A stretch of DNA of 26,105 nt, taken from the IMG/VR virus record IMGVR_UViG_3300023179_000450, positions 1 through 26,105 of that record, one strand, 5' to 3'. Positions 1,132 through 26,105 of this stretch are shown piece after piece; the stretch's first letter is position 1, and each line of letters starts with the position of its first letter. Both the position numbers and the translations under genes were made by a program. The DNA is from a virus. Below the pieces are notes generated by a model. It searched no databases and was not told the origin of the DNA. It saw nothing but the letters and a program-made list of their open reading frames with translations.

Positions 1132-2691
1132 CTATGTCTCCATAATTTTTTCAATGATTAAAGAATCGTTTTTACCCTTAGAATTACAACAAAGAACTAA
1201 ATTATTGCCTTCATATAATATATATTTGTATTTTTCTTTAATGGATGGAAAAGCTACAACATTATCTAATATACATGTGTCATCTTCAATAGTCAAAAAT
1301 GCCATCTTTTGTCCTTTAGATTCTCCATTTTTAATAGTATATTCTGATATTTCTTTTATGTTAGCTACTATGCAAATATTATTGCCCTTTTTACCGTTAG
1401 CTACTTCTTTACACGTAGTATTTGCTAAAGAAGTATCAGCAGTTTCTACTTTAGTAAATGTTATTGGACAACCTAAAAATTTGATTTCTTGATCTATTAT
1501 CCATTTTGTGCTATCTTCTAAACTATATGGTGGATTAAGAAGTAACTGTATTTCATTTTCAACAATTTGCTGTCTTTCCTTTTTACTAGTTCCACCACCA
1601 AGTTTTTTTGTCGGCGCTAAAGATCTTAATGCCTGTAATAAATTAGTCCATTGCAATGTATTATACTCTTCTGTCAGCCATTTTTGTTCAGCTAGTGTCA
1701 ATGTTTTAAAAATTTCATATTCATATAAAGCCCTTGTTCTACTAATAGATCCATTAAAATCTCTAAAGAATCCTATAGAAGCTAAAGCCTTAAAAGCCGT
1801 CGAGTTTATTCTACTACTTAAATATAGAAGTATTTCTAGCCAAGTAAATTGTGTTATCTTTTTATTTTGTTCTTTTTCTATTTCTTTAATTGCTTCTATT
1901 ACAGCTTCGCCTGTCTTTCCGGTAAGTGATTTTATATCTTTTATACCAAAATATATCTTCCCACCTTGAATATTAAATTTCTCCTTAAAGTTCTTTAAGC
2001 TAGGAGTTGTTACTTGTATATCAAATAGCTTTGCTTCGGAAATAAGTTCATATATTTCTTGGTGTGGGTCTTGCTTTTCATTAGCGTAATATAAATAAGA
2101 TAAAAAAAACTCTTTTGTGTTATGGGTTTTATAATATGCGCTTAGATAAGAGCAAGCTGCATATGAAACACTATGAGATTTATTGAAAGCGTACCTTGAA
2201 GATTTTTCAATCCATCCAAAAATTTGCTCTGCCTCTTCCTTAGTAACGATTCCAACGCGCTCTGCTCCAGCTATAAATGATTTTTTGACTTCATTCATGA
2301 GGTCAGCCTTCTTTTTTCCAATCGCTTTACGAAGAATGTCAGCTTCTTGTAGATTGAAACCAGCTATTTTCTCAGCAATGCGCATAGACTGTTCTTGATA
2401 AACTAAAACACCATAAGTTGGTTTAAGTATATCCTCAAGCGATGGGTGTAAATAGGTTACTTCTTCTCTACCGTGTTTTCTATCTACGTAGTGTTGAGTC
2501 ATAGACTTACCATCTAACATAGATTTTAAAGTTCCCGGCCTAATAATAGCAATAAGTGCTGATAGTTCTTCTAAGTTAGTTGGAGCAACTTTTTTAGACC
2601 AAGACTTACCAAGGTTACTTTCTAGCTGAAATATACCCTTAGTTCTTCCTTCTGCAAATAATTTCCAAGTATCTATATCTTTATAGTCCAT
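1132..2691 (-). CDS. dnaE: DNA polymerase III alpha subunit, C-terminal piece (fingers, HhH, OB)
   Basis: A 519-residue protein that is the C-terminal half of a bacterial DnaE. Residues 19-25 are GIFQLES. Then come 'RPGTL' (51-55), 'YVDRKHGREE' (68-77), 'PTYGVLVYQEQ' (91-101), 'EADILRKAIGKKK' (116-128) and 'FNKSHSVSYAACSY' (169-182), all hallmark DnaE fingers motifs in the right order. A helix-hairpin-helix region ('IYFGIKDIKSLTGK') follows, and an OB-fold occupies about 403-519. It lacks the PHP domain and the catalytic aspartates, which are encoded at 5249-6346 and 4381-5199. An in-frame TAG lies 4 codons before the ATG, so this is a separate polypeptide, not a frameshifted continuation. 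The ATG sits inside the last codons of the endonuclease VII-like gene with no clear ribosome binding site, which suggests translational coupling. Confidence 0.93.
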   Translation of the reverse strand: MDYKDIDTWKLFAEGRTKGIFQLESNLGKSWSKKVAPTNLEELSALIAIIRPGTLKSMLDGKSMTQHYVDRKHGREEVTYLHPSLEDILKPTYGVLVYQEQSMRIAEKIAGFNLQEADILRKAIGKKKADLMNEVKKSFIAGAERVGIVTKEEAEQIFGWIEKSSRYAFNKSHSVSYAACSYLSAYYKTHNTKEFFLSYLYYANEKQDPHQEIYELISEAKLFDIQVTTPSLKNFKEKFNIQGGKIYFGIKDIKSLTGKTGEAVIEAIKEIEKEQNKKITQFTWLEILLYLSSRINSTAFKALASIGFFRDFNGSISRTRALYEYEIFKTLTLAEQKWLTEEYNTLQWTNLLQALRSLAPTKKLGGGTSKKERQQIVENEIQLLLNPPYSLEDSTKWIIDQEIKFLGCPITFTKVETADTSLANTTCKEVANGKKGNNICIVANIKEISEYTIKNGESKGQKMAFLTIEDDTCILDNVVAFPSIKEKYKYILYEGNNLVLCCNSKGKNDSLIIEKIMET

Positions 2692-3025
2692 TGTTTTTTT
2701 CTAATAAGTAATTTAAAGCTTTAACGATACCGTCTATATTATCTCCAAGTTTTCCAAGCCCAGTATTGCAACGCTCACACAACCAACCCCTAAATTTATT
2801 ATTTGAGTGATCATGATCTAAACACCACTTTAATGGTATTTTTTTACAACACTCGCACACGCTGGGTTTATTTGGTGCCTGCTTATGTAACTCTCTTCTT
2901 ATTAATGAGTGTTCTTTTATGCACTGTCTACATCTCATGTCTAATTTATCTTTGTACATATTGTGTTTTGGAAATTGATTTAGCGATTTTTCTTCTTTGC
3001 AATAAATACAAATTTTACTTGACAT
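2681..3025 (-). CDS. Recombination endonuclease VII-like HNH (His-Me finger) nuclease
   Basis: A 114-residue protein. The C-terminal half, 'VCECCKK' (C57, C59, C60), 'WCLDHDH' (DHDH at 70-73), 'FRGWLCERCNTGLGKLGDN' (C83, C86), is the signature of the endonuclease VII family (T4 gp49, Pfam Endonuclease_7): a zinc-anchored beta-beta-alpha nuclease that cuts branched DNA. A second N-terminal cysteine pair arrangement (C6xxC9 and C32xxC35) forms another likely zinc site. Start 3025 (MSSKICIYC) is chosen because it lies where homology begins and overlaps the exonuclease stop by 11 bases; an ATG at 3061 in the same frame would overlap far more. In T4 this enzyme resolves DNA junctions before packaging. 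Here it lies between two pieces of the polymerase, where many relatives act as free-standing mobile nucleases. Both roles are possible. Confidence 0.85.
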   Translation of the reverse strand: MSSKICIYCKEEKSLNQFPKHNMYKDKLDMRCRQCIKEHSLIRRELHKQAPNKPSVCECCKKIPLKWCLDHDHSNNKFRGWLCERCNTGLGKLGDNIDGIVKALNYLLEKNNGL

Positions 3026-3695
3026 ATAGATTACCATTAGCAAAAGCTTTATCAAATTCAATATTTTGATATACAGCCCTATGGGTTTTTAGTAACTTGA
3101 TAAATATGTTGGCGGTATCTTTAACGTCTTGTAGAGCATCATGTGCATTATCTAAGCTTAATCCCATTTTTTCTCTTAGTGAATCCATACTTATAGACTT
3201 AACACTTGGATCTGCTTCTGTCCACATAAAAATATTATCCATAAGATCTACTTTATAAACTTTGCTAAACAATTTTTGATGATCTTTTGTTTTATCCCAA
3301 GGTCCAAATTCTCTACACAGTCTATCAATAATGATTAGATCAAAACCTATAATGTTATATCCAACTGGTATTGGGTTAAAAAACGGTTCACCCTTCCAAT
3401 TATATTGGTCTACAAACTTTGTAAATTTTGCCCATACTGATTTTAAGCATGGTGCTTCTTCTAGTTTTTCTCTAGACTTTCCAGTTATTTTTAAAGCACC
3501 ATCCTCTATTGGATCTAGTCCAGCACTAATAGCTTGATCATCATCTAATATAGGTTTAATTTCACTATTAAATGTTCCCTTTACTGATAAATTTCTACCG
3601 TCTAAAGCTATAGCAGCAATTTGAGTAGGCTGCGTCTTGTGGGGGTTTCTTGATCCTGTCTCCCAGTCAAACACAATAAAATCACGATTTGCCAT
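3015..3695 (-). CDS. DEDDh 3'-5' exonuclease (proofreading/epsilon-like)
   Basis: A 226-residue protein with all five DEDDh residues: D10 and E12 in 'VFDWETG', D119 in 'GYNIIGFDL', H185 and D190 in 'NAHDALQDVKD'. Family members (DnaQ/epsilon, exonuclease I, RNase T) remove nucleotides from 3' ends with two metal ions. A bacterial replicative alpha subunit normally borrows proofreading from such an enzyme, and this gene lies between two pieces of dnaE, so proofreading for the phage polymerase is the most likely role (inference). The ATG has AAGGAG 7 bases upstream and overlaps the preceding HNH gene by 14 bases. No clamp-binding motif was identified. A DNA repair or degradation role is the alternative. 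Confidence 0.88.
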   Translation of the reverse strand: MANRDFIVFDWETGSRNPHKTQPTQIAAIALDGRNLSVKGTFNSEIKPILDDDQAISAGLDPIEDGALKITGKSREKLEEAPCLKSVWAKFTKFVDQYNWKGEPFFNPIPVGYNIIGFDLIIIDRLCREFGPWDKTKDHQKLFSKVYKVDLMDNIFMWTEADPSVKSISMDSLREKMGLSLDNAHDALQDVKDTANIFIKLLKTHRAVYQNIEFDKAFANGNLYVK

Positions 3696-4320
3696 GAATA
3701 TGCTCCTTGTGTGGCGTAGAACTATACAACGTCTTAAAAATTCTTTGATCCTTATTTTGCTTAACTATTGCCTCGCAAAAATCTAGAAACTCTTGCTCTA
3801 ACATATTGCCTTTCATTATATTAACTCTTTTGTGTACCCATTGTACATTTCCTTCTACATACCCCTTGGATGGGTCAATTCTATCTAATGATGCTGTCCC
3901 ATGTCCCATTGCGTGTTCTAAATTATTACGCGAAAAAAATATTGGCAACCCGGTATATTTGCACTTTCTTTCTTGGGCAATAAAAAGATTCCAAATATAC
4001 TCTTTGGTTACAAGAAATTCTAATCCTCGGCTTTTGGCCCCGGCTTTTATAGATGATAAAAATGTCCCCTGCATATCCTCATAGCCAGTAAATCTTGGAT
4101 TTTTGATACCGCTTAAATAACAGCGTTTTTTTCTAAATTCTATCCCATTTGCTGCTAATATTTTTCTAATTTTTCTTGGATATGAATTTACCTCATTAGC
4201 AATTTGTAAAGCGCTCTTTCCATCACCATATGCCTTTATGACATATTCATGATCGATATCTTGTGCATATTTCCTGTCTGGAATGAATCTGCCATTATCT
4301 TTATTTCTTTTAGTTGCCAT
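3682..4320 (-). CDS. HNH endonuclease, probable free-standing homing endonuclease
   Basis: A 212-residue protein. The N-terminus (about 23-58) reads like a helix-turn-helix: 'VIKAYGDGKSALQIANEV' followed by 'RKIRKILAANGIEF'. The nuclease half has 'CKYTGLPI' (C120 with the T-G turn) and 'ASLDRIDPSKGYVEGNVQWV' (143-162), then 'HKRVNIMKG'. These are typical of phage HNH enzymes in which a CxxTG strand precedes the 'LDRID...Y..GN..WV' core. It starts 61 bases after the stop of the DnaE middle piece, with GGAG 8 bases before the ATG, and it overlaps the exonuclease gene. Its position at the second break of dnaE suggests it is the mobile element that opened the gap, cutting an unbroken dnaE allele to spread. 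That is inference, since no cut site can be read from sequence alone. Confidence 0.87.
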   Translation of the reverse strand: MATKRNKDNGRFIPDRKYAQDIDHEYVIKAYGDGKSALQIANEVNSYPRKIRKILAANGIEFRKKRCYLSGIKNPRFTGYEDMQGTFLSSIKAGAKSRGLEFLVTKEYIWNLFIAQERKCKYTGLPIFFSRNNLEHAMGHGTASLDRIDPSKGYVEGNVQWVHKRVNIMKGNMLEQEFLDFCEAIVKQNKDQRIFKTLYSSTPHKEHIHGKS

Positions 4321-4340
4321 AATTTTTCTCCGCGTAACTT

Positions 4341-4380
4341 CCGTTCCAAGATAATATACACAAAAAGACTTTGGAACTGG
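4341..4380 (-). other. Hairpin immediately after the DnaE middle-piece stop codon
   Basis: Arms GTTCCAA (4343-4349) and TTGGAAC (4371-4377) are perfect 7-base inverted repeats. Two further C-G pairs close the base of the stem across a one-base bulge, and a 21-base loop separates the arms. The stem starts directly next to the stop codon of the preceding gene and ends about 20 bases before the HNH start. No U-tract follows it on the transcribed strand, so it is not a standard terminator. It may protect or process the mRNA at this junction, or be a remnant of whatever inserted here. Folding has not been computed. Confidence 0.45.
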
Positions 4381-5199
4381 TTATACCTTTACAGTTTCCT
4401 GTATCTTCATTATTTTATCAAGTAAAGTTAAACCTAAAACATCAAATTTAACATGACCTAACGCTTCTAGATCTGTCATTTCTAATCCTGCAATTTTTTC
4501 TGATGAACCTTTCTGCTTAACCATTGGGCATACTTTGTGTAATGGTTCTTTAGATATAACAACACCAGCAGCGTGTTTACCTTGAGTTTTAAACGTACCT
4601 TCTAACTTAATTGCCTGTTCAAAGTATTCAGCATAGTCTCCATCTAATGATCCATCATCATTTATTCTGCAAAAATCTTGAAGCTCGTCTGCGTTATTTA
4701 TTAATGCCCATCTAATAATAGATCTATCATCGTCATCCATTTCTGCTAACTGGTCTGATATTTCTGCTTCATTTGGTATAATTTTTGTTATTGCGTTCAT
4801 TTCTGCAAAAGAGCAAGCTTCATTTACTCTCAATACTTCTTTGATAGCACTCCTTCCTTGAAGTCTACCAAATGTAATCATCTGACTAACCTTATCGTGA
4901 CCATATTTATCTTTAAGATATTTGATGACATCATCTCTATGATTAGCTGGAACGTCCATATCTATATCTGGTAAGGATATATGATCTTCTGTATTTCTAC
5001 CGGCGTTATAAAATCTTGCAAACAAAAGATCAAATTCAATTGGGTCTATTTGTGTAATTCCAATTAAATATGATATTAGACATCCAGCTGCTGAGTTATG
5101 TACACCTAAACCTTCTACATTGTAAGTATGGCTATTCTCTACAGAAATGTCGTGTACTTTACCTTTGTACTTAATTACTTTCTTTTTTGTAAGTTTCAT
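4381..5199 (-). CDS. dnaE: DNA polymerase III alpha subunit, middle piece (catalytic palm) preceded by split-intein C half
   Basis: A 272-residue protein in two parts. Residues 1-35 are the C-terminal half of a split intein, ending 'EGLGVHN'. Residue 36 starts DnaE again with 'SAAGCLISYLIGITQIDP', the exact continuation of GPGRG at the end of the upstream piece. The polymerase part carries 'SLPDIDMDV' (75-83, two or more catalytic aspartates), 'ITFGRLQGRSAIKEVLR', 'GKHAAGVVIS' and 'HVKFDVLGL' (D253, the third palm aspartate), so all active-site carboxylates of the C-family polymerase are on this piece. It ends naturally 19 residues after that motif, in the linker before the GIFQLES region. 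AGGAAAG lies 6 bases before the ATG. After predicted protein splicing the joined N plus middle product would be about 513 residues. Confidence 0.93.
   Translation of the reverse strand: MKLTKKKVIKYKGKVHDISVENSHTYNVEGLGVHNSAAGCLISYLIGITQIDPIEFDLLFARFYNAGRNTEDHISLPDIDMDVPANHRDDVIKYLKDKYGHDKVSQMITFGRLQGRSAIKEVLRVNEACSFAEMNAITKIIPNEAEISDQLAEMDDDDRSIIRWALINNADELQDFCRINDDGSLDGDYAEYFEQAIKLEGTFKTQGKHAAGVVISKEPLHKVCPMVKQKGSSEKIAGLEMTDLEALGHVKFDVLGLTLLDKIMKIQETVKV
5095..5199 (-). other. Split intein, C-terminal half (IntC, 35 residues)
   Basis: Codons 1-35 of the DnaE middle piece. It has the intein C-terminal blocks: 'KVHDISVENSHTYNVEG' followed by 'LGVHN', with the penultimate histidine (H34) and the terminal asparagine (N35) that cyclises to free the C-extein. 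The +1 residue is Ser36, a suitable nucleophile. The first 14 residues carry seven lysines. The length is typical for IntC of naturally split inteins (about 35-40). No homing endonuclease domain is present in either half. Activity is predicted from conserved residues, not shown. Confidence 0.92.
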
Positions 5200-5248
5200 T
5201 ATGAACTTTCCTAGCGGTTTTATAAAATTTTCTTACTGGATCATCCTT

Positions 5249-6346
5249 TTACACTTCTAAAATATCGTCTTTTTCTGTTAAATATTGAGCCTCCACCCAT
5301 CCCCTATTAGTAGTTAGAAATTTATGATCTTTTGTGCATCTTATGACAATTTTGCCAAACCATAATTCTAAAATTTCTTCTTCAACATCATAGATTAGAG
5401 TGTCGTAAACTCTTTGCTCTTTACCTTCACAATCTACAACTTTATCTCCAATTTTTATATCGGATATATTTTTCATTAAGCCGCTTGACATTTTAACTCT
5501 AGTATCTGGTAGAAAACATCCCCTTCCCGGCCCGCTCATCCATCCAGAGTCGTTCACGTATTTAATGATATCTTGCACTATCAAAAAATAACCAAACAAA
5601 TTAGCATTTTTGATTACGTCAAACTCTTCTTTAAATCTATCTAGATACTTCTGCTTGTTTACTTCGTCAGACACTTTCCCCTTATCAATTAGTAATGATT
5701 TCCAGCCTTTTCTGCATAACTCTTTCAAATACTCTTCTTCTGACAAATTATTTGGGCATTTGAATTTTGGCAGAATTGGCTTATTTAGGATATCATAATC
5801 TTCGCATTGATAATAAATGTCATCTAACAACTTTGATGATTTACCCTTGATTATATAATTATTTTCAGATATAGATATTTCGTTTTTCTTTATCTGTTTG
5901 TTTAGATTTGGAAGAGTTGTCTTAAGCTCTGAACATAACAATATTCTATGTAGACTAGCTTGTTCTTTATAACAATAAAAACTGGTTGGAATACCAACAT
6001 CATGACTTAGAAATATAAGATTATTTTTAGCCAATATATTTTTTACTAAAGACTCATCAACATTATTATTATCATCTATAGATGAAATTATCTCTATAAG
6101 ATTATACCAACCGTCCTTGTTTTTTGCGTATAAATTATATCCATCGAATGAACATCCTAATATTGGCTTAATGCCAGCGTCTTTGCAAGCCTTGTAAAAA
6201 GAAACGCATCCAGATATTGTTTTATAATCCGTAATGCCACAAGCCGGATATTCATTATCTTTACAAATCTTTGCTAATTCTTTAGGTTTAGAAAAACCTT
6301 TGAGCAAACTATAGTGCGTATAATTGTTTAATGGAAACCAATTCAA
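5249..6346 (-). CDS. dnaE: DNA polymerase III alpha subunit, N-terminal piece (degenerate PHP) fused to split-intein N half
   Basis: A 365-residue protein. Residues 1-276 are the N-terminus of a DnaE: a shortened PHP domain ('THYSLLKGFSKPKELAK', 'GITDYKTISGCVSFYKACKD', 'AGIKPILGC') and the start of the palm ('LFGYFLIVQDIIKYV', 'GWMSGPGRG' at 268-276). Residues 277-365 are an intein N half. The PHP metal ligands are lost: the HxH of the first motif aligns with NNY and the histidine of 'TDH' is tyrosine, so PHP nuclease activity is not expected. The start codon is TTG at 6346, chosen because AGGTGAT lies 5-6 bases upstream and homology begins at once. A strong hairpin terminator lies 23 bases upstream. 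Two other genes supply the remaining polymerase parts. Confidence 0.92.
   Translation of the reverse strand: MNWFPLNNYTHYSLLKGFSKPKELAKICKDNEYPACGITDYKTISGCVSFYKACKDAGIKPILGCSFDGYNLYAKNKDGWYNLIEIISSIDDNNNVDESLVKNILAKNNLIFLSHDVGIPTSFYCYKEQASLHRILLCSELKTTLPNLNKQIKKNEISISENNYIIKGKSSKLLDDIYYQCEDYDILNKPILPKFKCPNNLSEEEYLKELCRKGWKSLLIDKGKVSDEVNKQKYLDRFKEEFDVIKNANLFGYFLIVQDIIKYVNDSGWMSGPGRGCFLPDTRVKMSSGLMKNISDIKIGDKVVDCEGKEQRVYDTLIYDVEEEILELWFGKIVIRCTKDHKFLTTNRGWVEAQYLTEKDDILEV
5252..5518 (-). other. Split intein, N-terminal half (IntN, 89 residues)
   Basis: Starts at Cys277 of the N piece with CFLPDTRV (splicing block A), directly after GPGRG. Downstream 'IKIGDKVVD' and 'ELWFGKIVIRCTKDHKFLTT' supply blocks N2 and B, the latter with the TxxH motif (T62, H65). 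'GWVEAQYLTEKDDILEV' closes the half before a TAA. The segment is rich in acidic residues ('DVEEEILE', 'TEKDDILEV'), complementary to the lysine-rich IntC. Together the halves make a 124-residue mini-intein without endonuclease, split at the position where naturally split inteins usually break. The halves are encoded 49 bases apart. Confidence 0.92.
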
Positions 6347-6866: not shown

Positions 6867-7109
6867 TTATAGCTCTGTTCGCCCATTATTGCAGTTTCTA
6901 GATCCCATGAGTTGATCAAAAAATTTATTAAGTTTTCTAATCAATAATGTTCCAGCCTCTTCAAAAAAGCAAGGGAAAAATCCGTGAATAATTAGTAACA
7001 ATCCAGCTTCTAAACATACCAGACCATGACCTACCGCAAACTTTAAATGTTCACAATAAGTCATATTATTATCTTTTAGGTGCTTAGTCCAGTCTTTGTA
7101 AAGCTTCAT
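6867..7109 (-). CDS. DUF6356-like small membrane protein
   Basis: An 80-residue protein. 'DWTKHLKDNNMTYCEHLKFA' followed by 'GHGLVCLEAGLLLIIHGFFPCFFEEAG' fits the DUF6356 family as I know it: small phage and bacterial proteins with an 'HL...N.TY..H..FA...G......A......H...P..F' pattern. The middle (about residues 30-50) is hydrophobic and could lie in or against the membrane. Its function is unknown. The ATG at 7109 overlaps the stop of the GIY-YIG gene as ATGA; an alternative ATG is at 7118. No strong ribosome binding site is present, so translation is probably coupled to the gene before it. Confidence 0.65.
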   Translation of the reverse strand: MKLYKDWTKHLKDNNMTYCEHLKFAVGHGLVCLEAGLLLIIHGFFPCFFEEAGTLLIRKLNKFFDQLMGSRNCNNGRTEL

Positions 7110-7825
7110 TTTATCCATAATCTATATACTATAGCCTTGCTTTGACTTATAGTTAATCCAGACTTTAGAGAGTATTCATTAATTATATCTTGTTTTTTTC
7201 TTGTATCTTTATTTGCAATAGATTTAAATATCTCACTTTTTCTTCTTTTTGTTAAGCCTATATATTGCGGCCTATACAGTCTAATCCAATCTTTTAACTT
7301 CGATCTTGATATTCCGTTCCTGTTCGCAAAATCTTGCTGTGACTCCAGTGGATTTTTAGCCCAATCTTCTATTAATTTTATTATTTCATCATATGGTTTA
7401 GTTAAATTTCTATCTCTATTAGCTAATCTTACGTTTTTTTGCTCGTTAATTTTTTTTAAAGCCTTTGATATTTTCTGTTTAGTTGTATCAGTTTTTGGTC
7501 TATGGCATAGAGAAAGATCATATGTAGACGATAAAATATTTGTTAATGTGCCTCCCTCTGACTTTTTTCCAAACCATCTTATTAAGAATTCTTCTCTATC
7601 TTTTGATTCTTGACTATTTTCTGTTGTCCATAATATTTTTAATTCAAAATCATATTTAGCTATTATATTTAATTTGAATGGATTAGATTTATCTAATTTA
7701 TGATTTTTGCTTCTGTGATATAAATTTTTTTCGTTACTAGCTATTCCTATATAAAATAAATGTTCATCTATAGTATTAGTAGCATAAGTTATGTTCTTTT
7801 TGTATAGGCCATAAATATAGTTCAT
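7106..7825 (-). CDS. GIY-YIG homing endonuclease
   Basis: A 239-residue protein. The N-terminal domain has 'YIYGLYKK' (the GIY strand as GLY) and 'FYIGIASN' (YIG), followed by the 'R..NH' helix (LYHRSKNH) and the glutamate of 'DREEFLIRWFG', the catalytic layout of GIY-YIG nucleases. The C-terminal half has helix-turn-helix stretches ('SQQDFANRNGISRSKLKDWI' and 'IINEYSLKSGLTISQSKAIV') that would read the target site. The start at 7825 has GGAGG 8 bases upstream, and the domain begins there even though the frame stays open to 7882. Such genes are usually mobile and inserted between phage genes. The neighbour ending at 7883 is a candidate target region. DNA repair is the less likely alternative. 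Confidence 0.85.
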   Translation of the reverse strand: MNYIYGLYKKNITYATNTIDEHLFYIGIASNEKNLYHRSKNHKLDKSNPFKLNIIAKYDFELKILWTTENSQESKDREEFLIRWFGKKSEGGTLTNILSSTYDLSLCHRPKTDTTKQKISKALKKINEQKNVRLANRDRNLTKPYDEIIKLIEDWAKNPLESQQDFANRNGISRSKLKDWIRLYRPQYIGLTKRRKSEIFKSIANKDTRKKQDIINEYSLKSGLTISQSKAIVYRLWIK

Positions 7826-7882
7826 TTTGGTGATCCTCCAGTTTATTATACACATAATTGAAGGATCGCCTAAAATAACCAA

Positions 7883-8764
7883 TTAGTCTTCTACTGGTGA
7901 GCTTGCTCTCCACTGCCTGCAACTCCAGTATCTTGCTTTATATTTTGGACCCGGATTTTCATCGCATCCATGTCTCGCTCTAAAACTTTTACGCCTCGCT
8001 GGATCATCTCTTTTAATTTCCATGTCTGGGCTTCCAAAATTTACTTTAACTACATTACCCTTCTCATTCTTAACATAAACAGCAAATTTCTTTGGACCTT
8101 TTGGTGTTCTAAAAGGTTTATTCAAAGTTACTTTTCTTCCTTGATATTCTACTGCTGATGACTGTTCAACATCTCTTATATCTGTATATTTCATATAATC
8201 ATATGCCGATGACATATGTGTTTCTGCTTTAGAAATACTATCTTGAACCCAAGCTTCTAATTCCATGCCATCCGTCATCATGTTGTATAGCTCTGTAGCT
8301 TGCATAGCTATTTTCTTTAATTGAGATTTAGACATTCCACCTTCACCACCGCTATCAGATTGTGCCTTTTTCCAAGCTTCTTTAGATGGTCTGTCCTTAT
8401 CTCCAGGTTTTGCAGGCTTATAGTTTTTACCTTCACGCTCTTTCTTTTTGCGGATATTTTCCCAAAGTCCAGGCTTTGCTATAGAAATATCATACTCTTC
8501 TGTCTCTTCACCAAAATCTACATAATCTGCTTCTGCTGGAACTTCGAAGTTATATTCTGTAATTTCTTCTTCAAATCCATATGTGTTAAAATTAAACTCA
8601 AAGTCTACCGCTTCTATTTTATCACAAAATTCTGTAGCCTTAGACATGCAAATTGCAGTTCTTTGGTCACTATTTGGATATTCTTTTTTCATTGTGCCAT
8701 CTGACATACAGCGAGACATGAAATCATTTTTATCTTCATTTTCTTTTTTCGAAGGAATTGGCAT
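7883..8764 (-). CDS. Conserved phage protein with two cysteine-flanked end modules, possibly structural
   Basis: A 293-residue protein in three parts. The N-terminus 'MPIPSKKENEDKNDFMSRCM' continues to 'YPNSDQRTAICMSKA', a module I know from many phage proteins, often at ends of virion-associated proteins. Residues about 50-95 are strongly acidic with regularly spaced aromatics ('FEFNFNTYGFEEE', 'EYNFEVPAEADYVDFGEE'). The C-terminus ('KFAVYVKNEKGNVVKVNFG', 'MEIKRDDPARRKSFRARHGC', 'KARYWSCRQW') is another phage-conserved module with a cysteine pair. No catalytic motif is recognisable. Its AAGGAG site and isolated start suggest good expression. A virion or head-assembly role is a guess from the family pattern; its place next to replication genes does not help. 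Confidence 0.6.
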   Translation of the reverse strand: MPIPSKKENEDKNDFMSRCMSDGTMKKEYPNSDQRTAICMSKATEFCDKIEAVDFEFNFNTYGFEEEITEYNFEVPAEADYVDFGEETEEYDISIAKPGLWENIRKKKEREGKNYKPAKPGDKDRPSKEAWKKAQSDSGGEGGMSKSQLKKIAMQATELYNMMTDGMELEAWVQDSISKAETHMSSAYDYMKYTDIRDVEQSSAVEYQGRKVTLNKPFRTPKGPKKFAVYVKNEKGNVVKVNFGSPDMEIKRDDPARRKSFRARHGCDENPGPKYKARYWSCRQWRASSPVED

Positions 8765-8773
8765 ATTTTCTCC

Positions 8774-9799
8774 TTATCCCGGTGCCTCATAAAAGCCTAT
8801 GTTAAAGTTTTCTCTTGTGCAATTAGCAATAGTTTTTTCCATACCATGCTTTTTTAAGTGGTTCTCTATATACATACACATACTTTGATCTGTGTCTTGC
8901 CAATTGTTTTTGCAAAAATGGCATAGTTTTGTACATTTCCAATTATTTCTATCTTCTGATATAGGTTTTGGGTTATTATTATCTTGTATTTGTTTAAATC
9001 TTAATCTTAACATATCTAAAAATTTATCATGATCTGATTTATCAAAACACATAGAGAACGGCCCACCATCTTTAATAAAGAATATAGACATAATAGCTTG
9101 ATCATATTCGGGAAATAATTTAGAAATAGCATAATTATATAGTAGTAGTTGTGGATCTGAACACAACTTTTCATAATCTTTTTCTACGCCCGTTGCCCAA
9201 TCTAACCTACGTCCTGTTTTATAGTCTACCACTTCTATAACTTTTTTGTCTACTCTAGTTACTAAATCTATAGTACCCTTTATTGCCAGTTGCCCATTTA
9301 CAATTTTGCCATCTGGTAATGTATAAGTATATTTTGCCCAATCTTCTTCTATAGGTATATCAAAGTGAGGCTCTGCTGCAACTATATCTCTATTTCTTGG
9401 ATCAAATTGACCATTATTAAAATTTAAAGTTGACCACACTAAAGTTTTACATAGCTCCTTATCAGATTTAGTAAAATCATGATGAGAATTAGCTGTATAA
9501 TATGAGAAACTTTTATCTAACATAGTTTGAACTACATCATCTGAAAATAATTCATTTTTATCTATGTTAATTTTTCCAATCGCATCATCAACAAATAACA
9601 ATTTTTTTACTTTGTTATTGCTATCTTGATAAACTTTTTTAAGAGATGCTAATAGCTCTAAAGTCTTATGAGTTATAGTTCCAATGTCAGCTTTTTTACC
9701 ACTTATTGATTGATGTCCAAGGACATAGGTGATAAAATATTGCATTTGACAATAGTCATAATTGTTATAACTAGATGATCTTATATATGTTACTAGCAT
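8774..9799 (-). CDS. PD-(D/E)XK exonuclease, RecB/Cas4-like with cysteine cluster
   Basis: A 341-residue protein. Motifs in order: 'SSSYNNYDYCQMQY' (the start of RecB/Cas4 folds, C17), 'GTITHKTLE' (H44), 'KGTIDLVTR' (D178), 'IEVVDYKTG' (D192, K194) and 'DPQLLLYNYA' (Q217). These form the full RecB-family nuclease site. 'KCTKLCHFC' (C289, C293, C296) together with C17 could hold a 4Fe-4S cluster as in Cas4 and AddB; this is likely but not certain because the spacing differs a little. Such phage enzymes resect DNA ends for recombination or degrade host DNA. It starts 1 base after the dNMP kinase gene, with GGAA upstream, in the replication operon. Confidence 0.88.
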   Translation of the reverse strand: MLVTYIRSSSYNNYDYCQMQYFITYVLGHQSISGKKADIGTITHKTLELLASLKKVYQDSNNKVKKLLFVDDAIGKINIDKNELFSDDVVQTMLDKSFSYYTANSHHDFTKSDKELCKTLVWSTLNFNNGQFDPRNRDIVAAEPHFDIPIEEDWAKYTYTLPDGKIVNGQLAIKGTIDLVTRVDKKVIEVVDYKTGRRLDWATGVEKDYEKLCSDPQLLLYNYAISKLFPEYDQAIMSIFFIKDGGPFSMCFDKSDHDKFLDMLRLRFKQIQDNNNPKPISEDRNNWKCTKLCHFCKNNWQDTDQSMCMYIENHLKKHGMEKTIANCTRENFNIGFYEAPG

Positions 9800-25314: not shown

Positions 25315-26105
25315 TTAGAAAATTTTGTCTATTGTCCAGTTTACTTTTCTTGGTGGAAAGCCATCCACATCACTAAATACCCAAGAACCATTACCGGAAA
25401 GCATTTCTGCTGCATCTTTTTCTCTAATCCAAAAACTTCCATCTGGTTGATCATGTCTTTTAGGGCCATTATTCCAAATTCCCCAAGAATTTTGTACCAA
25501 GAATAAAGTTTCTTTGTAAATCTCATGAGTATCGTCCATTCCTACCCAAGCCATCGCGTGCGCCCAAGACCCAGAGCGTGAAGCTATACCATGCTTATCT
25601 CTGCGACTAGAAAAGCCAGACATAGAACATACACTAATACCATAACCATTAGCAATAGCATCTCTTGCTTGTTCTATTGTGCTAATGAGTGAGATTGTTT
25701 TAACTGGATTCTTTTTTGCTTCATTAATTAGCTCTTGTGGAATTCCAGTTCTACCCCACTTGCCACCAATGCTAGAATATGTAGATAAATCTATGTCTCC
25801 GTATTGTTTGCGTATTAACAATCCACCTACTTTATTAACAAATCGTGCAGCTACAGAACATGACATTCCTTCTCCACCATGACCTCTGGAGCCATAGATT
25901 CCTTCTACAGCCCCTCTTGCTATAAATTCTTCACGTTCCCCATTTATTATTTCGCATGAACGTGTTACATCTACAGCATTTCGTGTAGAATGTGAAACAC
26001 AATCTCCTTGAACTTGTTTTTCAGATGGTCCAAAATTAGGATCAAATTTTAACAAATTTTTAAATGGTAGTGCAAGTTTACCTTTTCCATTTCCATATAA
26101 ATCAT
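25315..26105 (-). CDS. Papain-family (C1) cysteine peptidase, partial at right edge
   Basis: The frame is open to the window end, beyond the first apparent start at 26055 (a TTG), so the true N-terminus lies outside. At least 262 residues are seen. 'KQVQGDCVSHSTRNA' holds the catalytic cysteine with its oxyanion glutamine, 'GSWAHAMAWVGMD' the histidine and 'FLVQNSWGIWNNG' the asparagine, the C1A triad in order. 'DGSFWIREKDA' and the 'SISVCSMSGF' region also fit. Such peptidases in phage structural regions may process virion or host-surface proteins. Its substrate is unknown. It lies at the head of the structural group. Confidence 0.88.
   Translation of the reverse strand, partial: DLYGNGKGKLALPFKNLLKFDPNFGPSEKQVQGDCVSHSTRNAVDVTRSCEIINGEREEFIARGAVEGIYGSRGHGGEGMSCSVAARFVNKVGGLLIRKQYGDIDLSTYSSIGGKWGRTGIPQELINEAKKNPVKTISLISTIEQARDAIANGYGISVCSMSGFSSRRDKHGIASRSGSWAHAMAWVGMDDTHEIYKETLFLVQNSWGIWNNGPKRHDQPDGSFWIREKDAAEMLSGNGSWVFSDVDGFPPRKVNWTIDKIF

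What the first reader, a model, noticed from the sequence alone, without database searches (positions are those of the whole stretch)
4381..6346. DnaE replicative polymerase split in its active-site motif by a naturally split mini-intein
Seen: the gene at 5249-6346 ends DnaE at GPGRG and continues as CFLPDTRV and an 89-residue intein N half with block B TxxH. The gene at 4381-5199 begins with a 35-residue intein C half ending GVHN, then resumes DnaE at SAAGC. The exteins join without a missing residue in the conserved GPGRGSAAG motif. Known: split inteins join polypeptides in trans (cyanobacterial DnaE; gp41, NrdA and NrdJ fractured genes in environmental phage data). The cyanobacterial split sits elsewhere in DnaE. 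Inference: the phage makes a working polymerase only after trans-splicing.
Basis: partly seen in the sequence, partly recalled or inferred. Interest (0 to 1): 0.85.

Follow-up and report, generated by a model that had tools for sequence, protein, structure and literature searches.

The report
Phage polymerase joined by split intein
In this uncultured phage the gene for the replicative DNA polymerase is cut inside its active-site motif by a two-piece intein that should rejoin the protein after translation, and the gap between the pieces still holds the tail of a lost gene-spreading endonuclease, so it records a late step in how naturally split inteins arise.

Summary
On the minus strand, DnaE is interrupted at GPGRG|SAAG by an 89-residue intein N half (5252-5518) and a 35-residue C half (5095-5199). 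All splicing residues are invariant in 23 related inteins. Close relatives without the intein encode GPGRGSAAG in one frame, with no residue missing. Both halves are under purifying selection.

(1) The 49-bp gap is a scar. About 20 distinct phage contigs carry the same split intein at the same site with a PD-(D/E)XK endonuclease-like gene between the halves, whose 3' end overlaps the start of the C half, usually by 29 nt. The window keeps only the last ~25 codons of that gene. (2) Splicing does not make DnaE whole: a second break, without an intein and holding a proofreading-exonuclease gene, separates palm from fingers in every close relative with both parts in view.

Intein and polymerase trees conflict, so the intein has moved between phages. 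It belongs to the published 'fractured gene' class. I found no published DnaE case at this site, but could not read the founding paper (Dassa 2009). Splicing itself is inferred, not shown.

The parts
5519..6346 (-). DnaE N extein (PHP domain and start of palm, 276 aa, ends GPGRG; TTG start)
   Evidence: Pfam PHP and DNA_pol3_alpha; aligned to E. coli alpha through a relative; dN/dS 0.088
5252..5518 (-). Intein N half, 89 aa, C1 and T62xxH65; TAA stop at 5249-5251
   Evidence: Invariant residues in 23 relatives; dN/dS 0.108; profile matches to NrdJ-1, Npu DnaE, gp41-1 structures
5171..5248 (-). Scar: last ~25 codons and stop of a deleted endonuclease gene; overlaps the first 29 nt of the C-half gene out of frame
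   Evidence: E 3.5e-11 against the gap; 0 of 2000 shuffles; best profile hit in the whole window, 1.5e-5, next 0.38
5206..5212 (-). AGGAAAG, likely ribosome-binding site of the C-half gene, inside the scar
   Evidence: Sequence; similar purine-rich sequences at the same place in relatives
5095..5199 (-). Intein C half, 35 aa, D106, H123, N124 (counted through both halves), +1 Ser
   Evidence: dN/dS 0.043
4384..5094 (-). DnaE middle extein (palm with the PDIDMD and KFD Asp motifs, 237 aa); stop at 4381-4383
   Evidence: Pfam DNA_pol3_alpha 1.2e-50; dN/dS 0.036
3682..4320 (-). HNH/endonuclease-VII-like gene inside the second DnaE break
   Evidence: PHROG endonuclease 6.5e-29
3015..3695 (-). Proofreading-type exonuclease gene inside the second DnaE break
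   Evidence: Pfam RNase_T 6.3e-13; PHROG DNA polymerase exonuclease subunit 5.5e-24
2681..3061 (-). Endonuclease VII-like gene inside the second DnaE break
   Evidence: Pfam Endonuclease_7 2.4e-12
1132..2691 (-). DnaE C part (fingers to C terminus, 519 aa), a separate gene with no intein C half
   Evidence: Pfam DNA_pol3_finger 4.5e-47

Best explanation
A phage DnaE gene is interrupted between G and S of its palm GS motif (E. coli G363|S364) by a naturally split class 1 intein. The two halves are translated from adjacent genes, associate, and splice in trans (Cys1, Thr/His of block B, His-Asn at the end, Ser+1), giving one PHP+palm chain of about 513 residues. That chain then works with the separately encoded exonuclease and fingers polypeptides. 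The intein came as a 'fractured gene' element with an endonuclease gene between the halves. In this phage the endonuclease was deleted just after the N-half stop codon, leaving its last ~25 codons, which hold the ribosome-binding site and start of the C-half gene. Shown by sequence: intein identity, site, scar, purifying selection, tree conflict. Inferred: splicing, DNA cleavage and homing by the endonuclease, and non-covalent assembly across the second break.
For: Splicing residues invariant in 23 N/C pairs. Intein-free relatives join the exteins exactly. dN/dS 0.11 and 0.04 in the halves, 0.09 and 0.04 in the exteins. About 20 distinct relatives have the endonuclease gene between the halves, and its tail is retained in the window. 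L062 (= L111) independently shows the same state in another DnaE lineage. Intein and extein trees conflict.
Against: No spliced product or endonuclease cleavage has been seen. Curated Pfam intein models are matched only below their cut-offs. The endonuclease model has no significant fold match; the nearest homing endonuclease is I-Bth0305I at E 0.36. Assembly of the DnaE parts across the second break is untested.
Confidence: 0.87

Rival explanations
1. It is an unsplit mini-intein that sequencing or assembly errors have broken.
For: The gap is only 49 bp, and an unsplit relative exists (L125).
Against: The gap matches an endonuclease tail, not an intein linker. Stops lie in both relevant frames. 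The N-half stop and C-half start sit where they do in some 20 relatives. L111 shows the same state independently.
Confidence: 0.02
2. The halves no longer splice, and the DnaE pieces work by non-covalent assembly, as in Aeh1 NrdA or phage 25 gp43A/B.
For: Such working splits are known (PMC2988022), and this DnaE has a second break without an intein.
Against: All catalytic residues are kept under strong purifying selection. The cut lies between G and S of the palm GS motif, and an unspliced chain would carry 89 and 35 extra residues there.
Confidence: 0.07
3. The whole DnaE locus is a decaying pseudogene cluster and the phage uses another polymerase.
For: Several endonuclease genes crowd the locus and DnaE is in three genes.
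Against: dN/dS 0.04-0.11 in the parts tested. The catalytic Asp motifs are kept, and the fingers and SSB genes are intact.
Confidence: 0.03

Closest known systems
'Fractured genes': phage split inteins with a free-standing endonuclease gene between the halves (Dassa et al. 2009, cited in PMC3653736 and PMC12350094; e.g. gp41-1, NrdJ-1, NrdA-2)
   Same: Phage DNA-metabolism gene, split at the usual endonuclease position (long N half, ~35-aa C half), endonuclease gene between the halves in relatives; profile matches to NrdJ-1 (3.6e-10) and gp41-1.
   Different: Target is DnaE at GPGRG|S; endonuclease has a PD...ExK core rather than a demonstrated EDxHD motif; in the window the endonuclease is gone and only its tail remains. 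Whether Dassa lists DnaE could not be checked.
Cyanobacterial split DnaE intein (Ssp/Npu)
   Same: A split intein in DnaE without an endonuclease; profile match 3.3e-6 to Npu DnaE.
   Different: Different insertion site (fingers gene, FNKSHS) and only distant similarity; there the gene halves are far apart, here adjacent (established knowledge for the former).
Contiguous inteins at the same DnaE site: Bacillus phage G gp329, Lactococcus phages 949 and P1048
   Same: Insertion between GRG and S.
   Different: One chain, about 31% identical over the matched stretch.
Split UvsW of Salmonella phage S16 (gp114, gp114.1, gp115)
   Same: Intein N half about 40% identical, an ORF between the halves that overlaps the C-half gene.
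   Different: Other host protein; the ORF between is only marginally similar to this endonuclease (E 0.006).
Split Pol III alpha of jumbo phages (PMC7824862) and split gp43 of Aeromonas phage 25 (PMC2988022)
   Same: Phage polymerase in two separate polypeptides, a precedent for the second, intein-free break.
   Different: The jumbo-phage version is minimal and encoded by distant genes; here PHP, palm and fingers are present and adjacent, with the exonuclease gene between.

Membership tests
Class 1 intein (Hint splicing domain) | Cys1, block B TxxH, block F Asp, terminal His-Asn, nucleophile at +1 | tested here: met
   C1, T62, H65, D106, H123, N124 invariant in 23 pairs; +1 Ser
Class 1 intein (Hint splicing domain) | Protein splicing activity | not testable with these tools
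   Needs co-expression; only purifying selection is shown
Class 1 intein (Hint splicing domain) | Hint fold | tested here: inconclusive
   Profile matches solved intein structures; the only fold attempt, on unsplit L125 without an alignment, failed (pLDDT 33)
Fractured gene with split intein and endonuclease | Halves on two adjacent genes, exteins exactly contiguous | tested here: met
Fractured gene with split intein and endonuclease | Endonuclease gene between the halves | tested here: not met
   Deleted in the window, tail retained; met in about 20 relatives. So: derived from the class, in a state that has lost one feature
Fractured gene with split intein and endonuclease | Endonuclease of the EDxHD/Vsr-like family (half of Dassa's loci, from memory of the abstract) | tested here: inconclusive
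   Invariant E160, D197, E207xK209; weak fold match to I-Bth0305I
Cyanobacterial split DnaE intein | Insertion at Y|CFNKSHS of DnaE | tested here: not met
   Junction at GPGRG|S; AFNKSHS is uninterrupted in the downstream gene
DnaE (Pol III alpha) | PHP, palm with GS and catalytic Asp motifs, fingers | tested here: met
   Across three genes

The most novel reading that the evidence does not exclude
The window and its relatives preserve, at one site in one protein, nearly all steps from an unsplit mini-intein, through an N-half/endonuclease fusion and a fractured gene with an endonuclease, to decay and deletion of that endonuclease. If the order is right, loss of the endonuclease from a fractured gene is a general route to endonuclease-less naturally split inteins, and the overlap between the endonuclease tail and the C-half start helps lock the gene in the split state.
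Probability: 0.45. Interest if true: 0.75.

Novelty: new variant of a known kind. Interest (0 to 1): 0.6.

Why it matters
Naturally split inteins without an endonuclease are widely used protein-ligation tools, but how they arise is open. Here the imprint of the lost endonuclease is still readable and relatives at the same site show other states, so the order of events can be tested. The cut lies between the G and S of the palm GS motif of a replicative polymerase, so this phage's replication should depend on trans-splicing. The family also supplies some 20 uncharacterised phage split inteins as candidates for protein ligation.

Tried and rejected
Self-splicing RNA: an Rfam scan of the whole window at E <= 1 found nothing, so a group I or II intron is not indicated at either DnaE break. 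Assembly artefact: rejected, see rivals. Cellular origin: a scan of genome contigs with the N+C profile gave nine weak hits, mostly over one short motif; their host genes were not examined. Cultured phage with the same split DnaE: none seen in the phage collection with N- or C-half queries (best rows only). AlphaFold of the unsplit L125 intein without an alignment: pLDDT 33, discarded. Endonuclease fold search: good model (pLDDT 87) but no significant match; the best-ranked include PD-(D/E)XK nucleases. Dassa 2009: not held. Literature searches for a phage DnaE split intein found none.

Full report
What was checked. The window is itself a whole IMG/VR virus record of 26,105 bases. The two ORFs are as described. 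The first encodes PHP and the start of the palm up to GPGRG, then 89 residues beginning CFLPDTRV with TKDH as block B. The second begins with 35 residues ending GVHN and resumes DnaE at SAAGC. Against E. coli Pol III alpha, using the intein-free relative L088, the junction is G363|S364. From established knowledge this is the GS motif of the polymerase-beta-type nucleotidyltransferase palm.

Relatives. A scan of IMG/VR with the second ORF gave 80 loci. Most are intein-free and encode GPGRGSAAG uninterrupted; the closest (L004, L005, L006, L088) are 80-82% identical in the first extein part and 94-97% in the second. L002/L003, L062 and L063 carry the split intein. A scan with an alignment of four N halves raised this to about 20 distinct DnaE loci with a split intein at this site and an endonuclease gene in the gap; several contigs recur under more than one locus number. 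In 23 N+C pairs (one of them the unsplit L125) C1, T62, H65, D106, H123 and N124 never vary.

The gap is a scar. In those loci the gap holds a gene of about 260-340 codons. Fourteen aligned copies share an invariant E160...PD197...E207xK209 nuclease core and a cysteine-rich N part; matches to TnsA-like and phage endonuclease I families are weak. Its 3' end overlaps the start of the C half out of frame, by 29 nt in most loci and 17-41 nt in the others measured. In the window only the last ~25 codons remain, immediately after the N-half stop codon, and their stop codon also lies 29 nt past the C-half start. The match is E = 3.5e-11 against the gap, scores 96 against at most 42 in 2000 shuffles, and is the best hit of the endonuclease profile in the whole window (1.5e-5, next 0.38). 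Part of that match lies in the overlap with the C half, which is conserved for its own reasons, but the 49 bases before the ATG alone align at 78% to L100 and 80% to L099. The retained tail carries the ribosome-binding-like sequence of the C-half gene, which may be why the deletion stops there (inference). L062 (= L111), in another DnaE lineage, has lost its endonuclease the same way and keeps its own tail.

Other states at the same site. L099 has an otherwise full-length endonuclease with one in-frame stop; L103 has frameshifts and losses. L115 has the N half fused in frame to the endonuclease, with a separate C half; L125 has an unsplit mini-intein. Bacillus phage G gp329 and Lactococcus phages 949 and P1048 have contiguous inteins there. 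The order of these states is inference.

Function and movement. dN/dS between the window and L100 is 0.09 and 0.04 for the exteins, 0.11 for the N half and 0.04 for the C half; synonymous sites are near saturation, so the ratios are rough. The window's intein is 86% identical to that of L099, whose second extein part is only 57% identical, but 80% to that of L100, whose second extein part is 97% identical. Intein data reject the extein grouping of L099 with L124, L120, L119 and L116 (p-AU 0.0002), and extein data reject window+L099 (p-AU 1e-35). The groups were chosen after seeing the trees, so these p values are somewhat optimistic. The conflict means the intein moved between phages; the intein tree does not settle the direction.

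Second break. The palm part ends near E. coli residue 567 and the fingers part starts as a new gene at 2691. Between them lie a proofreading-type exonuclease gene and, in the window, two endonuclease genes. In the intein-free relative L033 the order is a 521-aa PHP+palm gene, exonuclease, then a 527-aa fingers gene, each overlapping the next. All close relatives with both parts in view have this break; the more distant L109 and L182 encode palm and fingers together. There is no intein motif at this break. Working split phage polymerases without splicing are known (PMC2988022) or proposed (PMC7824862). After splicing the phage would therefore still have a two-chain polymerase plus an exonuclease.

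Known or new. Split inteins with an endonuclease gene between the halves are the 'fractured genes' of Dassa et al. 2009, which the library does not hold. The joint profile matches NrdJ-1 and gp41-1. A similar plan, not annotated as such, is in UvsW of Salmonella phage S16. No paper found describes a phage DnaE case at this site, and none of the listed rows of the phage collection shows it. I rate it a new variant of a known kind: a known mechanism at a site not found reported, in a derived state that records the loss of its endonuclease.

Noticed in passing
L114:8574-11442: This DnaE carries a second split intein, again with an ORF between its halves, at VFQ|C (N half at the end of the 8574-9758 ORF, C half from 10546). 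Its DnaE is thus in three pieces joined by two split inteins. L102 also ends its middle part in a second N half.
   Followed up: partly
L107:5588-8508: Second split intein in the same DnaE, at about FNK|SHAMAY, a few residues from the cyanobacterial DnaE split site; it seems to start with Ser.
   Followed up: partly
L125:6001-6951: Unsplit mini-intein at GPGRG|S followed by what looks like a second intein at the catalytic PDID|C motif.
   Followed up: no
L098 (Salmonella phage S16) 2814-5540: gp114, gp114.1 and gp115 (UvsW) look like a split-intein gene with an endonuclease-like ORF between; annotated as helicase, hypothetical protein and helicase.
   Followed up: partly
L097 (Campylobacter phage CPt10) 2187-6254: NrdA annotated as a disrupted pseudogene looks like a split-intein gene with two ORFs between the halves, plus a contiguous intein further on.
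   Followed up: partly
L093 (Cellulophaga phage phi13:1) 2705-6305: DnaE in two adjacent genes broken between GRGS and PDID; the first ends in about 50 extra residues. L071 and L115 are interrupted in the same stretch.
   Followed up: no
window 1132-4383: DnaE palm/fingers break holding an exonuclease gene; L002 has an FkbM-type methyltransferase gene where the window has an HNH-like gene, so the break collects accessory genes.
   Followed up: partly
L100, L103, L104, L106, L124, L182, just after the N-half stop: The leader between N half and endonuclease shows recurring motifs (AAGAACCYC..., GGTGTATA or AT-rich hairpin-like stretches) that could control the endonuclease gene; deleted in the window.
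   Followed up: no
window 7106-7882: GIY-YIG homing-endonuclease-like gene with an HTH region upstream of DnaE.
   Followed up: no
window 25315-26055: Protein with QGDCVSHSTRN, SWAHAMAW and QNSWG motifs that looks like a papain-type cysteine peptidase (by eye).
   Followed up: no
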